Positions 37,107 through 55,490 of a stretch of 64,000 nucleotides of DNA are shown here, in pieces. Below the pieces are notes generated by a model that did no database searches, was not told the DNA's origin, and saw only the letters and a list, made by a program, of their open reading frames with translations. The translations under genes and the position numbers were made by a program. Each line of letters starts with the position of its first letter. Positions within the stretch are counted from its first letter, which is position 1. The stretch lies in the NCBI RefSeq assembly GCF_008039615.1, contig NZ_VDUZ01000004.1, positions 1 through 64,000 of the forward strand, given 5' to 3'. The stretch comes from Vineibacter terrae. Its GTDB lineage: Bacteria > Pseudomonadota > Alphaproteobacteria > Reyranellales > Reyranellaceae.

Positions 37107-37241
37107 GTCAAGATTGTGAACATCGGCTCAGATGTTATTGAAAATGCTTGTGAATAGTGGACTTTTGGGAATTGATTCGCTAGCTTGTCGGAGGGACAGG
37201 CTGCCCGCCGGGCGGGCCTGGTTCAGTGACCGGAGCTTCCG

Positions 37242-38135
37242 ATGCCGCGCTCGTCCTGGAAGGGCTATCTCAGGCTGTCGCTCGTGTCCTGCGCCGTTGC
37301 GCTCTACAACGCGACGTCGACCGCAGAGCGTGTGTCGTTCAACACGCTGAGCCGGAAAACAGGCAATCGCCTCAAGCAGTTGATGATCGATTCTGTGACG
37401 GAGGAACCGGTCGACACCAGCGACCGCGTGAAGGGCTACCAGGTCAGCAAGGGCCAGTACGTGCTGGTCGAGGACGCCGACCTGGAAGCGCTCAAGATCG
37501 AGAGCACCAGGCTGATCGAGATCGAGACCTTCGTGCCGCAGGCCGAGGTCGACCAGATCTACCTCGACGGCGCCTACTACCTGGCGCCGGACGACAAGGT
37601 GGCGGAGGAGGCGTTCGCCGTCATCCGCGATGCCATGGCGCGCAAGAAGGTCGTCGGCGTCGGGCGCGTCGTGCTGAACCGGCGCGAGCGCATGCTGATG
37701 CTGCAGCCGCGCGGCCAGGGCATCCTGGCCACGACCCTGCGCTATCCCTACGAGGTGCGGCAGGACAGCGAATATTTCGCCGGCATCACCGACGTGAAGC
37801 TGCCGGCCGAGATGCTCGAGATCGCCGAGGTGATCATCGACCGCAAGTCGGGCCATTTCGAGCCGGACAAGTTCGCCGACCGCTACGAGGAGGCGGTCGT
37901 GGGCCTGCTGCGGGCCAAGCAGGCGGGCCAGGCCTTTGCGGTGCCCGAGACGCCGGCGCCCAGCAATGTCGTCAACATCATGGACGCGCTGAAACGCAGC
38001 CTGGAGGCCGAAGGCGCCGAGGCGACGGCCACGCGCCGCCCGCGCGCGCCGAGCAAGAAGCCGGCGGCGGCCGAGAAGAAGCCGGCCGAAGCCGCCGAGG
38101 CGCCGCGCAAGCCCAAGGCCCGCAAGGCGCGCTGA
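37242..38135 (+). CDS. ku: Bacterial Ku, DNA end-binding protein
   Basis: 297-residue Ku of the non-homologous end-joining pathway; a homodimer would thread onto DNA ends and recruit LigD. The opening SWKGYLRLSLVSCAVALYNAT and the central LKIESTRLIEIETFVPQAEVD and AREGVGRVVL-like MARKKVVGVGRVVLNRRERM match the Ku core. After the core (to about residue 240) comes a long Lys/Ala/Pro-rich basic tail (APSKKPAAAEKKPAEAAEAP), as in many Ku proteins with DNA-binding extensions. A TPR/BRCT-like gene follows after 43 bp; ligD lies at 51205. Confidence 0.95.
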   Translation: MPRSSWKGYLRLSLVSCAVALYNATSTAERVSFNTLSRKTGNRLKQLMIDSVTEEPVDTSDRVKGYQVSKGQYVLVEDADLEALKIESTRLIEIETFVPQAEVDQIYLDGAYYLAPDDKVAEEAFAVIRDAMARKKVVGVGRVVLNRRERMLMLQPRGQGILATTLRYPYEVRQDSEYFAGITDVKLPAEMLEIAEVIIDRKSGHFEPDKFADRYEEAVVGLLRAKQAGQAFAVPETPAPSNVVNIMDALKRSLEAEGAEATATRRPRAPSKKPAAAEKKPAEAAEAPRKPKARKAR

Positions 38136-51032: not shown

Positions 51033-51118
51033 GTCGTCCCGAGCGCAGCGAGGGATCTCCTGCGGCGGGGCGCACGGTGCGCTGTTCGCAGGAGATCCCT
51101 CGCTGCGCTCAGGACGAC
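51033..51118. repeat. 86-bp palindromic repeat, family A
   Basis: Arms begin GTCGTCCCGAGCGCAGCGAG; the centre holds GGCGCACGGTGCGC. It lies between the divergent yceI and ligD genes, so a promoter for ligD must lie within or after it. Confidence 0.95.
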
Positions 51119-51204
51119 GGGGAAGATCGCGATGGCGTGCATGACGCAGCTCGCGATCGCTTGCGCAGTGGAAACCGCGCGTCGTTTCGCCTAGGCTCTT
51201 GCCG

Positions 51205-54200
51205 GTGAACAAACCCCTGGACGCCTACAGGGCGAAGCGTGATTTCTCCAAGACGCCGGAACCCGACGGCCAGGGCCGCGCGGCGCCGGCCGGCAATGCC
51301 TATGTCATCCAGAAGCATGCGGCGCGCCGGTTGCACTACGATTTCCGCCTCGAGCTCGACGGCGTGCTGAAGAGCTGGGCGGTACCTGAAGGGCCGAGCC
51401 TCGTTCCCGACGTCAAGCGCCTGGCCGTCCATGTCGAGGACCACCCGCTCGAGTATGGCGGCTTCGAGGGCGTGATCCCGCAAGGCGCGTATGGCGCCGG
51501 CACGGTGATGGTGTGGGACCGCGGCACCTGGACGCCCGAGTTCGATGCCGATTTCGGCTACCGCAAGGGGCATCTGAAGTTCCGGCTCGATGGCCAGAAG
51601 CTGAAGGGCGTGTGGCATCTCGTGCGCATGGCGCGCAAGCCGCGCGAGAAGCAGGACGCCTGGCTGCTGATCAAGTCCAAGGACGAGGCCGCGCGCACGG
51701 CCGATGAACCCGACATCCTGGCGCAGATGCCGAGCTCGGCGCTGACGGGCCGTGATATCGACGCCATCGCGCGCGCCCGGGACAGGGTGTGGACATCCGG
51801 CCAGGGCGAGATCGCCGCGCCGGCACAGCACGCGCAACCGCGCAAGCCGGTCGTGAAGCCCGCCGCCATCGCCAAGGCGAAGAAGGCTGCCTTGCCCGAC
51901 TGGGTCGAGCCCTGCCTGCCGTCGCCGGCCGAGAAGGCGCCATCGGCCGCCGGCTGGGTGCACGAGATCAAGCATGACGGCTATCGCGTGCAGGCCCGCA
52001 TCGAGAACGGCAAGGCGGCGCTGCTGACGCGCCAGGGCCTCGACTGGACCGAGCGGTTCCCGGGCATCGGCCCGGCGCTGGCCGCCCTGCCTGTCAAGAC
52101 CGCATTGATCGACGGCGAGATCGTGGTGCAGACGGAGGCCGGCGTCGCGAGCTTCACGGCGCTGGTCGAGGCGCTCAAGAGCGGTTCAGGCAATTTCGTC
52201 TTCTACGGCTTCGACCTGCTGCACCTCGACGGCTACGATTTGCGCGAGGCGACTCTGGTGGCGCGCAAGGCGGCGCTGACAAAGATCATCGCCGCCGGCG
52301 CCGACAATGGCCGCGTGCGCTTCAGCGAGCACATCGCGGGCGACGGCGGCACGATCTTCACGCACGCCAGCCGCCTGGGCCTGGAGGGCATCGTCTCCAA
52401 GATGGCGTCGGCGCCCTACCGGTCCGGGCGCGTCAAGACGTGGCTCAAGGTGAAGACGACGCAGAGCGGGCCGTTCGTGGTCGCGGGCTTCATACCGTCC
52501 TCGGTCGACAGCCGGTCGGTCGGCGCGCTCGTGCTGGGCGAGCATGTCGGCGGCAAGCTGGTGCCGTCCGGACATGTCGGCAGCGGCTTCAGCGCAAGCA
52601 ACGCGCACGCGCTGTGGCAGGCGCTCGATCCGTTGCGCACCAAGACGGCGCCGCTCAAGGACGAGACCGCGACGGCCAAGGGCGTGAAGTGGGTCGAGCC
52701 GCGCGTCGTGGTCGAGATCGAGTATCGCAGTCGCACCGCCAGCGGCCTCATCCGGCATGCGGTGTTCCGTGAGCGTGTCGACAACAAGAACGCAGCCGAT
52801 GTGGCGCGCGATGCCGCTGCCGCGCCGGTGGCCGCGAAGCGACGGCGTGAGATGGTGCCGCTGGTGCGGCTGACCAATCCCGGCCGGCTGCTGTGGCCGG
52901 AACAGGGCATCACCAAGCAGGGGCTGGCGGATTTCTACACCGAGATCGCCGACTGGATCCTGCCGCATGTCGCCGGCCGTCCGCTCAGCCTGCTGCGCTG
53001 CCCCGGCGGCATCGCCGAGCAATGCTTCTTCCAGAAGCATCCCTGGGCCGGGCTGGAGGGCGCGGTGCGCCAGGTGAAGGTCCCGGACGACGACGAGCCG
53101 ATGCTGGCCGTCGACGACCTTGCCGGCCTGCTGCAACTCGTGCAGGCCAGCGTGCTGGAGATCCATCCCTGGGGCTCGACGGCCGAACGGCCGCTGCTGC
53201 CCGACCGCATCACCTTCGACCTCGATCCCGGCGACGGCGTGCCATGGCAACGCGTGGTCGAAGCCGCCTTCGACGTGCGCCTCCGGCTGCAGAAGCATGA
53301 CCTGCAGAGCTTCGTGAAGACGACCGGCGGCAAGGGCCTGCATGTGGTCATGCCGCTGCAGCCCGGTCCCGATTGGGACGCGGTGAAGCGCTTTGCCCAG
53401 ATGACCGCCGAGAGCATGGCTGCCGAGCGGCCGGACCGCTACGTGGCCAACATGGCCAAGCGGGTGCGGCAGGGCCGCATCTATATCGACTACGTGCGCA
53501 ACGGCATGGGCGCGACGGCCGTGGGCGCGTACTCGACGCGCGCCCGCGCCGGCGCCGCGGTGTCGACGCCGCTGTCCTGGGACGAGATCGGCCCCGGCAT
53601 CCGCTCCAATCACTTCACGGTCGCCAACCTGCCCAAGCGGCTGGCGTATCTCGAGCGCGATCCCTGGGACGGCTTCCTGTCGCTGCAGCAGCATCTGCCG
53701 TCTGCCGGCACGCATGCCGACCCCGCCGTGCCGTCGAAGGACGACCTTGCCGCCTACTGGACGTCGGTGGCGGGCGCGGCGCTGGCGCATCTCGGTCGCC
53801 GGCCGCTCGTGCTGGTGCGGCATGAGAACGGCGAGACGTTCTACCATCAAGGCCGGACGCTGCCGCCCATTCCGCCTGGCGTGCACCAGCTGCCGATCAC
53901 CAGGCGCGACGGCGCCGAAGGCGTCCGCCTGTGGATCGACAGCGTCGAGGGCCTGCTCGGCCTCGTCGAGATGAACGTCATCGAGATCCATCCCTGGGGC
54001 GCCACGATCGACCATATCGAGCGGCCCGACATGCTCGTGCTGGGCCTCGATCCCGGCGACGGCGTCGAGTGGACGTTCGTGATCGAGACCGCGCTCAGGA
54101 TGCGGGCGCTGCTGCGCGACGAGGAGCTGGACAGCTGGCCCAAGCTGACCGGCGGCAAGGGCGTGCACATCATGGCGCCGATCGAGCCCGACCTCGACTG

Positions 54201-54480
54201 GGACGAGCTGCGCCGCTACGGCCAGTCTCTCGCCGAGCGGCTGGCGGCGACGGCGCTGCAGCGCTACGTGACCGTCGCGGCGCGGGACAGGCGCCACGGC
54301 AAGCTGTACCTCGATTGGCAGCCCAACGGACGCGGCAGGACGGCCGTCGGCGCCTACTCGCCGCGCGCGCGGCCGGGCTTTCCGGTCGCCGCGCCGATCA
54401 CCTGGGCCGAGCTGGAGCGCGGCATGCGCTCAAACGCCTACACGATCTTCCGGCCGCCGCCGCCGCCCAAGATGAGGTAG
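51205..54480 (+). CDS. ligD: LigD, ATP-dependent DNA end-joining ligase, with a second polymerase-like domain
   Basis: 1091 residues from GTG 51205 (TTG 51199 is an alternative). Residues 20-190 are the 3'-phosphoesterase domain (H38, H44, D46, R48, H80 at the expected spacing). About 235-540 are the ligase, with adenylation Lys256 in IKHDGYR. About 553-835 are the primase-polymerase domain with D672-L-D674, H713 and D762 intact. About 843-1091 repeat that fold: IHPWGATIDHIE, LTGGKGVHIMAPI and YLDWQPNGRGRTAVGAYS align with the first copy. In it G947 replaces the first metal aspartate; D949, H988 and D1037 remain. Typical LigD is about 840-900 residues. The extra domain is probably non-catalytic; that conclusion is inference. 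Confidence 0.95.
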   Translation: MNKPLDAYRAKRDFSKTPEPDGQGRAAPAGNAYVIQKHAARRLHYDFRLELDGVLKSWAVPEGPSLVPDVKRLAVHVEDHPLEYGGFEGVIPQGAYGAGTVMVWDRGTWTPEFDADFGYRKGHLKFRLDGQKLKGVWHLVRMARKPREKQDAWLLIKSKDEAARTADEPDILAQMPSSALTGRDIDAIARARDRVWTSGQGEIAAPAQHAQPRKPVVKPAAIAKAKKAALPDWVEPCLPSPAEKAPSAAGWVHEIKHDGYRVQARIENGKAALLTRQGLDWTERFPGIGPALAALPVKTALIDGEIVVQTEAGVASFTALVEALKSGSGNFVFYGFDLLHLDGYDLREATLVARKAALTKIIAAGADNGRVRFSEHIAGDGGTIFTHASRLGLEGIVSKMASAPYRSGRVKTWLKVKTTQSGPFVVAGFIPSSVDSRSVGALVLGEHVGGKLVPSGHVGSGFSASNAHALWQALDPLRTKTAPLKDETATAKGVKWVEPRVVVEIEYRSRTASGLIRHAVFRERVDNKNAADVARDAAAAPVAAKRRREMVPLVRLTNPGRLLWPEQGITKQGLADFYTEIADWILPHVAGRPLSLLRCPGGIAEQCFFQKHPWAGLEGAVRQVKVPDDDEPMLAVDDLAGLLQLVQASVLEIHPWGSTAERPLLPDRITFDLDPGDGVPWQRVVEAAFDVRLRLQKHDLQSFVKTTGGKGLHVVMPLQPGPDWDAVKRFAQMTAESMAAERPDRYVANMAKRVRQGRIYIDYVRNGMGATAVGAYSTRARAGAAVSTPLSWDEIGPGIRSNHFTVANLPKRLAYLERDPWDGFLSLQQHLPSAGTHADPAVPSKDDLAAYWTSVAGAALAHLGRRPLVLVRHENGETFYHQGRTLPPIPPGVHQLPITRRDGAEGVRLWIDSVEGLLGLVEMNVIEIHPWGATIDHIERPDMLVLGLDPGDGVEWTFVIETALRMRALLRDEELDSWPKLTGGKGVHIMAPIEPDLDWDELRRYGQSLAERLAATALQRYVTVAARDRRHGKLYLDWQPNGRGRTAVGAYSPRARPGFPVAAPITWAELERGMRSNAYTIFRPPPPPKMR

Positions 54481-55300: not shown

Positions 55301-55490
55301 CCTCTCCCCGCGAGCGGCAGGGCATTCGCATATGCCCTACCGTCATCCCGAGCGTAGCGAGGGATCCCCCGCGAATTGCGCACCGTGCGCCTTGCCGCAG
55401 GAGATCCCTCTCCTGAGCCTGTCGAAGGGGGCGCTCGGGATGACAGCGAGGTCATATGCGAATGCCCTGCCGCTCCCGCGGGGCGAGGGA
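55301..55490. repeat. Nested palindromes: family D-like outer arms around a family A copy
   Basis: Outer arms: CCCCGCGAGCGGCAGGGCAT then TCGCATATG (to about 55334), and the inverted CATATGCGAATGCCCTGCCGCTC from 55454. Inside lies a family A copy (55342-55444) that is 103 bp, because its right arm is interrupted by about 19 extra bases (TCCTGAGCCTGTCGAAGGG). This is three levels of insertion. Confidence 0.85.

What the first reader, a model, noticed from the sequence alone, without database searches (positions are those of the whole stretch)
53731..54480. LigD carries a second, degenerate polymerase domain
In the sequence, residues 843-1091 of LigD align along their full length with the first polymerase domain (553-835): both share IHPWG, DPGDG, GGKG-H and Y-D-W/Y followed by A-VGAYS-RAR. 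Known LigD enzymes have one such domain. In the second copy the first of the paired metal aspartates (D672-L-D674 in copy one) is G947, while D949, H988 and D1037 remain. In known LigD-POL structures both aspartates are needed for nucleotidyl transfer, so copy two is probably a non-catalytic or specialised domain for end binding, synapsis, or control of copy one. I know of no description of this layout, but cannot search.
Basis: partly seen in the sequence, partly recalled or inferred. Interest (0 to 1): 0.78.

Follow-up and report, generated by a model that had tools for sequence, protein, structure and literature searches.

The report
LigD with a captured, dead polymerase
A soil bacterium's DNA-break-repair enzyme carries a second polymerase domain that came from another kind of ligase and has lost its catalytic metal site, yet is kept in frame in all twelve genomes found to have the enzyme, so it probably serves as a structural or docking part rather than as a polymerase.

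Summary
Window 51199-54480 (+) encodes one uninterrupted 1093-aa LigD: PE-LIG-POL1-POL2. POL2 matches LigD_Prim-Pol at 220 bits, is 41% identical to POL1, is predicted to have the LigD-POL fold (pLDDT 93.7; TM 0.87 to 2fao) and has Gly for the first metal Asp.

It is not a duplicate of POL1: all 12 POL2s group with POLs of separate LIG-POL ligases (100/100), and a POL1+POL2 clade is rejected (p-AU 7.5e-9). So a LigD gained a LIG-POL-type polymerase domain at its C-terminus.

Twelve of 76 order genomes have this LigD lineage; all 12 carry POL2. None was seen outside the family in samples of 385 and 398 genomes. The first Asp is lost in 12 of 12 POL2s, kept in 18 of 18 LIG-POLs aligned. In nine, template wedge and loop 2 are gone too. 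dN/dS stays under 1 in all 66 pairs (median 0.44), though POL2 is usually the least constrained domain.

Best reading: POL1 polymerises; POL2 is a non-catalytic pseudopolymerase, scaffold or docking surface. Its role is unproven.

The parts
51199..54480 (+). ligD, PE-LIG-POL1-POL2, 1093 aa (TTG start; GTG at 51205 also possible)
51310..51627 (+). PE domain (LigD_N, residues 38-143)
   Evidence: Pfam PF13298, 146.6 bits
51949..52455 (+). LIG nucleotidyltransferase domain (residues 251-419)
   Evidence: Pfam PF01068
52513..52773 (+). LIG C-terminal (OB) domain (residues 439-525)
   Evidence: Pfam PF04679
52912..53667 (+). POL1 with metal ligands and motif II/III residues intact (D674, D676, H715, D764)
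   Evidence: PF21686 304.6 bits; residue map
53677..53730 (+). fusion junction: POL1 ends as unfused LigDs end (LxQxLP), then the start of a LIG-POL-type POL (cf. DAVVPSKEEL)
   Evidence: comparison with unfused LigDs and LIG-POLs
53737..54447 (+). POL2, LIG-POL-type polymerase domain, probably non-catalytic
   Evidence: PF21686 220.3 bits; tree; model
54043..54045 (+). G949 codon (GGC) in place of the first metal Asp of motif I
54166..54168 (+). H990, motif II His (Mtb H178), invariant in 12 of 12 POL2
54364..54366 (+). R1056 (Mtb R244, triphosphate contact), invariant in 12 of 12 POL2
37230..38132 (+). ku (stop-to-stop frame; Ku domain 37275-37766), of the Ku clade found in tandem genomes

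Best explanation
A conventional NHEJ LigD (PE-LIG-POL) of an ancestor in the Reyranella family was fused, at its natural C-terminus, to a polymerase domain of the kind carried by LIG-POL ligases of rhizobia and others (shown by domain make-up, tree and junction; the direction of transfer is inferred). POL1 keeps the metal ligands and the motif II and III residues and does the nucleotide addition (inferred). POL2 lacks the first metal aspartate in all twelve known members, and in most of them the second one, the template wedge and loop 2, so it should not be able to use the two-metal mechanism (strong inference). It has nevertheless been kept in frame, with dN/dS below 1, and with the fold core, the motif II Ser/Thr and His and the triphosphate-contact Arg preserved. 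It therefore most likely acts as a pseudopolymerase: a folded scaffold or docking domain that holds LigD at the break, through Ku, through POL1 or the ligase domain, or through a phosphate or nucleotide held in the old triphosphate pocket. Which partner it touches is not shown.
For: Domain order and scores. POL2 clade 95/88, joined with 18 LIG-POL POLs at 100/100, POL1 with conventional LigDs; forced POL1+POL2 clade rejected, delta lnL 177.5, p-AU 7.5e-9, on a quick tree. Junction at the LigD end. First Asp lost in 12 of 12 POL2, kept in 18 of 18 LIG-POL and 12 of 12 POL1 aligned. All 12 LigDs of the POL1 lineage (71-100% identity; next LigD 47%) carry POL2 among 76 order genomes. POL2 frame open to its usual end in 11 of 12, to 17 residues short in G035; a crude neutral simulation gives a stop in 85% of runs at 0.1 and 99% at 0.3 changes per site. 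POL2 omega under 1 in all 66 pairs (0.17-0.86, median 0.44; 0.29 in 30 close pairs); in six chosen close pairs 0.17-0.27, upper bootstrap limits at most 0.49. Models of POL2 of the window (pLDDT 93.7) and of a relative lacking motif I (93.3) both match LigD POL structures. Four tandem genomes (G028, G035, G051, G061) showed no other LigD, and one Ku each.
Against: No experiment, and no partner is known. POL2 is the least constrained domain: omega above POL1 in 66 of 66 pairs and above LIG in 57 of 66, and over the 36 pairs of the second genus its pN/pS (0.448) equals that of the 13-codon linker (0.430). G035 has lost the last residues of POL2 to an early stop. Conserved core residues could reflect only the need not to misfold. 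The model of the decayed POL2 used an alignment rich in intact homologues, and the nine most decayed POL2s were not modelled. In the tree POL2 is sister to the sampled LIG-POLs (92/84 for those), not nested in them, so the donor and the direction are inferred. The window's POL2 retains D951, H990 and D1039, so weak or altered activity is not excluded there. Of the four genomes without another LigD, three are incomplete or contaminated (60%, 82%, 7% contamination).
Confidence: 0.57

Rival explanations
1. POL2 is a neutral leftover of a fusion accident and is simply decaying.
For: Step-wise loss of motif I, wedge and loop 2; faster protein change than POL1 in 66 of 66 pairs and than LIG in 57 of 66, with pN/pS like the linker over the 36 pairs of the second genus; early stop in G035.
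Against: Omega below 1 in 66 of 66 pairs, bootstrap limits under 0.5 in six close pairs; no member of the lineage without POL2 in 76 genomes; 51 positions invariant in 12 of 12; stops expected soon under neutrality (crude).
Confidence: 0.2
2. POL2 works as the in-cis partner of POL1 in DNA-end synapsis, each POL holding one break end as two PolDoms do in the Mtb synaptic structures.
For: Mtb PolDoms pair across a break through loops 1 and 2 (PMC3898472, passages); POL2 of the window keeps F/Y wedge residues and the R220 equivalent.
Against: No POL2 has N13 or a basic residue at K16 of the 5'-phosphate pocket (though K26 is kept in 11 of 12); wedge residues are deleted in nine and loop 2 in ten.
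Confidence: 0.17
3. POL2 still catalyses a limited reaction with one or altered metal sites, or another chemistry such as AP lyase.
For: The window and G002 keep the second Asp, motif II and motif III; B. subtilis PolDom also has AP lyase activity (PMC13201618, passages).
Against: First Asp lost in 12 of 12, second in all but two or three by alignment; AP incision by that PolDom is reported to need Mn and nucleotide at the site.
Confidence: 0.08
4. POL2 was kept to recruit the Ku that works with LIG-POL ligases, so the fusion lets one ligase serve two Kus.
For: POL is reported as the Ku-contacting part of LigD (PMC7719229 and PMC5124664, passages); several LIG-POL genes lie next to ku genes.
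Against: The six ku genes of tandem genomes put in a tree form one clade (97/94) next to the ku of a Methylobacteriaceae record whose LigD POL is sister to POL1; ku genes near LIG-POLs fall elsewhere (several long branches, and one row, L137, was labelled LIG-POL-linked although it lies beside a POL1-type gene).
Confidence: 0.1

Closest known systems
LigD of Pseudomonas aeruginosa type (PE-LIG-POL, order recalled; PDB 2fao POL)
   Same: Domain order of the first 830 residues; POL1 residues; POL fold predicted for POL2
   Different: A second POL of other ancestry at the C-terminus, metal site lost
LIG-POL ligases of Sinorhizobium, Mesorhizobium, Bradyrhizobium, Steroidobacter and others (open frames mostly about 590-660 aa)
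   Same: POL2 groups with their POLs, lacks the same N-terminal strand, starts at the same place
   Different: They carry their own LIG domain and, in the 18 aligned, intact motif I; POL2 has neither
Eukaryotic DNA polymerase epsilon catalytic subunit
   Same: Two distantly related polymerase modules in tandem in one chain, N-terminal active, C-terminal inactivated with a presumed structural role (PMC4142720, one passage)
   Different: B-family replicative polymerase; no relation by descent; analogy only
Stand-alone PolDoms of Streptomyces (polK, polR)
   Same: Proposed there to act as linker or adapter to recruit a ligase (PMC5124664, passage)
   Different: Separate genes, no fusion to a full LigD

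Membership tests
LigD (bacterial NHEJ ligase) | PE, LIG and POL domains in one chain | tested here: met
   Pfam domains and NCBIfam TIGR02776/02777/02778/02779 above cut-off for the whole protein
LigD (bacterial NHEJ ligase) | accompanied by Ku | tested here: met
   ku frame at 37230-38132; 10 of 12 tandem genomes have ku on the contig of the tandem ligD, the other two on another contig
LigD POL domain (PF21686) | sequence profile and fold, for POL2 | tested here: met
   220.3 bits; Foldseek 2fao TMq 0.87
LigD POL domain (PF21686) | NCBIfam ligD_pol TIGR02778 cut-off for POL2 alone | tested here: not met
   207.2 against 214.7 bits
Active LigD polymerase | motif I DxD metal ligands in POL2 | tested here: not met
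   Gly at the first Asp; first Asp lost in 12 of 12
Active LigD polymerase | polymerase activity of POL2 | not testable with these tools
   needs purified protein
POL of LIG-POL ligases | POL2 in one group with them, apart from POL1 and conventional LigDs | tested here: met
   100/100 for the joint group; within it POL2 (95/88) is sister to the 18 LIG-POLs (92/84)
POL of LIG-POL ligases | preceded by its own LIG domain | tested here: not met
   POL2 follows POL1 directly
Internal duplication of POL1 | POL1 and POL2 of the tandem proteins form one clade | tested here: not met
   p-AU 7.5e-9
Mtb-type synapsing PolDom | 5'-phosphate pocket N13, K16, K26 and loop 2 in POL2 | tested here: not met
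   N13 and K16 not found in 12 of 12 (K26 kept in 11); loop 2 absent in 10 of 12

The most novel reading that the evidence does not exclude
A bacterial end-joining ligase has evolved a dedicated pseudopolymerase: a polymerase domain captured from another NHEJ enzyme, catalytically killed, trimmed of its DNA-handling loops and given a newly conserved surface (for example the EPDLxxxE stretch, residues 996-1003), which now docks or allosterically controls the active polymerase or ligase, a bacterial counterpart of the inactive half of Pol epsilon.
Probability: 0.37. Interest if true: 0.66.

Novelty: new variant of a known kind. Interest (0 to 1): 0.5.

Why it matters
LigD is usually described as one PE, one LIG and one POL domain. 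This lineage is a natural experiment in which a POL domain is kept after losing its catalytic site, which could separate the non-catalytic jobs of POL (Ku contact, end holding, control of ligation) from nucleotide addition. Relatives at different stages of decay show which surfaces the retained job needs. In a few relatives this LigD appears to be the only one, so the effect of POL2 on end joining could be tested directly.

Tried and rejected
Internal duplication: rejected by tree and AU test. Frameshift or assembly join: very unlikely, 12 genomes. Neutral remnant: disfavoured, not excluded (the simulation has no codon or GC-bias model; Nei-Gojobori rates only). Link of POL2 to LIG-POL-type Ku: not supported. 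Net charge of the domains gave no clear sign: means POL1 -2.8, POL2 +1.4, LIG-POL +4.8. Other tandem LigDs: none seen outside the family in class (385 genomes, 59 with POL) and phylum (398 genomes, 97 with POL) samples, which overlap each other and hold a few family members; at most six candidates a genome were scored there, and I read the lists by eye for two hits in one frame. One search kept the best 80 of 224 loci: 2 tandem (both family members), 55 with LIG and a POL2-type POL in one frame, 8 split or cut, 15 with a POL1-type POL (counted). Left out of the POL tree: G039 pseudogene fragment, G057 partial gene, most single-POL LigDs of the family, and most LIG-POL loci (18 used). Paper searches for two POL domains in LigD, for Reyranella with ligase and for point mutants of the POL Asps gave nothing usable; one paper on S. 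meliloti Ku is not held. That both Asps are essential rests on recall and on their role as metal ligands in PMC8656161 (section 7, part 1), not on a mutant study that I saw. On re-checking I added the omega over all 66 pairs and the early stop in G035; this lowered the best explanation from 0.62 to 0.57 and raised the neutral rival from 0.15 to 0.2, with small changes to the synapsis rival (0.2 to 0.17) and the novel case (0.4 to 0.37).
Full report
What is there. The open frame 51199-54480 (+) encodes a 1093-aa LigD with PE (38-143), LIG (251-525), POL1 (572-823) and a second POL (about 843-1087). POL2 scores 220.3 bits against LigD_Prim-Pol, POL1 304.6, cut-off 27.4. NCBIfam's ligD_pol model gives POL2 alone 207.2 bits, just below its cut-off of 214.7, as fits a diverged domain. 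The two POLs are 41% identical over 244 positions.

Fold. An AlphaFold2 model of POL2 made with 44 aligned sequences has mean pLDDT 93.7 and pTM 0.90. Its best solved matches are POLs of this kind: 2fao (P. aeruginosa LigD) with TM 0.87, then the Methanocella NHEJ polymerase, M. smegmatis Prim-PolC and the Mtb LigD POL.

Where it occurs. A POL1 search of 76 genomes of the order found 12 LigDs of this lineage (71-100% identity, this one included) with a clear gap to the next LigD at 47%; all 12 have POL2. They are 3 of the 4 genomes of the window's genus and 9 genomes of one other genus of the family. In class and phylum samples (385 and 398 genomes, overlapping, at most six candidates scored a genome) no LigD outside the family had two POLs in one frame. 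Eight of the 12 genomes also have a single-POL LigD, though that of G049 lies in a frame of only 397 aa and that of the window's genome lacks part of LIG. G028, G035, G051 and G061 showed only the tandem one and one Ku (G035 is 60% and G051 82% complete, G061 7% contaminated).

Origin. A scan of the genome collection found 224 loci related to POL2, of which the best 80 were returned: 2 tandem LigDs, both of this family; 55 with LIG and a POL2-type POL in one frame, in Sinorhizobium, Mesorhizobium, Bradyrhizobium, Steroidobacter, metagenome-assembled genomes and others; 8 split or cut; and 15 with a POL1-type POL. G060 of the same family has both the tandem LigD and two LIG-POLs. In a tree of 64 POL domains the 12 POL2s form one clade (95/88), joined at 100/100 with 18 LIG-POL POLs (themselves 92/84); the 12 POL1s form another (100/99) next to conventional LigDs. 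Holding POL1 and POL2 together costs 177.5 log-likelihood units, p-AU 7.5e-9, on a quick tree of 65 rows. POL1 ends where unfused LigDs of its kind end (LxQxLP or similar) and POL2 begins where the LIG-POL polymerase begins (DAVVPSKEEL). So this is a joining of two kinds of NHEJ enzyme, not a duplication. That the domain moved from a LIG-POL into LigD is inferred: POL2 is sister to the LIG-POLs sampled, not nested in them.

State of the active site. The first motif I Asp is absent in 12 of 12 POL2s and present in 18 of 18 LIG-POL and 12 of 12 POL1 domains aligned. Mapped to Mtb PolDom numbers named in PMC8656161 (section 7, part 1 read) and PMC3898472 (passages), POL2 of the window keeps F63 (F), F64 (Y), H111, D139, S172 (T), K175, H178, R220, D227 and R244 and lacks D137, N13, K16 and K217 (Arg instead). 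N13 and K16 are missing in the LIG-POLs too. In the nine POL2s of the other genus the wedge and loop 2 are deleted, the mapped loop 1 residue is gone and the motif I aspartates are lost, with the loop after them shortened in eight; one relative (L061) has an Asp at the second position by alignment. Retained in all twelve are the three residues described as contacting the triphosphate: Ser or Thr 172, His 178 and Arg 244; D227 is kept in 11. The decayed POL2 of G001 (L132), which lacks motif I aspartates and loop 2, still gives a confident POL-like model (pLDDT 93.3, TM 0.84 to 2fao), with the caveat that its alignment holds intact homologues.

Selection. Nei-Gojobori omega for POL2 is under 1 in all 66 pairs of the 12 genes: 0.17-0.86, median 0.44, and 0.29 in the 30 pairs with LIG dS under 0.5. 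It is above POL1 in 66 of 66 and above LIG in 57 of 66 (medians POL1 0.21, LIG 0.32), so POL2 is usually the least constrained of the domains. In six close pairs chosen for bootstrapping it is 0.17-0.27 with upper limits of 0.25-0.49. Over the 36 pairs of the second genus its pN/pS of 0.448 equals that of the 13-codon linker, 0.430, which speaks against strong constraint. Pairs share history and are not independent. The frame runs to the usual end in 11 of 12; in G035 it stops early, so that its alignment ends 17 columns before that of the window. In a simple neutral simulation 85% of runs have a stop at 0.1 and 99% at 0.3 changes per site. Fifty-one positions are invariant in all 12. Eight positions are conserved in at least 11 of 12 POL2s but rare in LIG-POLs, five of them in E996-P997-D998-L999 and E1003, which may mark a gained surface, although the nearest LIG-POL by tree path (L076) has a partly similar stretch (IKPDM).

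Ku. A ku lies 13 kb upstream in the window, and 10 of 12 tandem genomes have ku on the contig of the tandem ligD. The six Kus of tandem genomes of that kind put in a tree form one clade (97/94) next to the ku of a Methylobacteriaceae record whose LigD POL is sister to POL1; the ku genes near LIG-POLs fall elsewhere (several long branches). The tandem LigD and its Ku thus look like a set inherited with the POL1 parent.

Mechanism. Shown: fusion, predicted fold, loss of metal ligands, retention in frame, omega below 1. Inferred: POL1 does the polymerisation; POL2 is a pseudopolymerase. In print, POL mediates the contact of LigD with Ku (PMC7719229, passage), and its role has been put as recruitment more than synthesis (PMC5124664, passage), so a dead POL with a conserved core could serve as a docking part. 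Pol epsilon gives a precedent: tandem modules, distantly related, the C-terminal one inactivated with a presumed structural role (PMC4142720, one passage). Which partner POL2 meets is open, and slow decay of a dispensable domain is the main rival.

Novelty. Searches of the held library for two or tandem POL domains in LigD found no description (listings only). PMC7719229 counts genomes with multiple POL copies (37% of NHEJ-positive bacteria), in the passages I saw without a two-POL protein; its supplementary tables were not read. Most subscription literature was not searchable. I file it as a new variant of LigD.

Noticed in passing
L054:10661-12931 (G000:C56): The genome's other LigD (single POL) lacks the C-terminal OB part of its ligase domain by an in-frame gap of about 145 residues compared with the two same-genus relatives; the tandem LigD may then be the only complete LigD of this genome, if the draft assembly is right.
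   Followed up: partly
window 51033-51120, with an inverted copy of part of it at 55340-55410: An 88-nt palindromic repeat just upstream of ligD has 40 places in the genome at 91% identity or more, the number that the search scored out of 675 candidates: a REP-like family.
   Followed up: partly
L047, L048 (G060:C14, C59): One family member carries the tandem LigD, an ordinary LigD and two LIG-POL ligases, with four ku genes.
   Followed up: partly
L049 (G039:C42:9378-10034): Broken remnant of a POL2-type polymerase gene in a genome without the tandem LigD.
   Followed up: no
L074, L075, L082, probably L117: LIG-POL genes are followed directly by two ku frames; the two of L117 overlap and sit on very long branches.
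   Followed up: no
LIG-POL loci and POL2: The 18 LIG-POL polymerases aligned lack the N-terminal strand with the 5'-phosphate pocket residues N13/K16; the six linkers printed have a conserved ENILQLLPDAVVPSK-like stretch instead. How they hold the 5' end is open.
   Followed up: no
G161:C274:3600-3764: A fragment scoring as LigD POL on the strand opposite to an intact POL 0.4 kb away.
   Followed up: no
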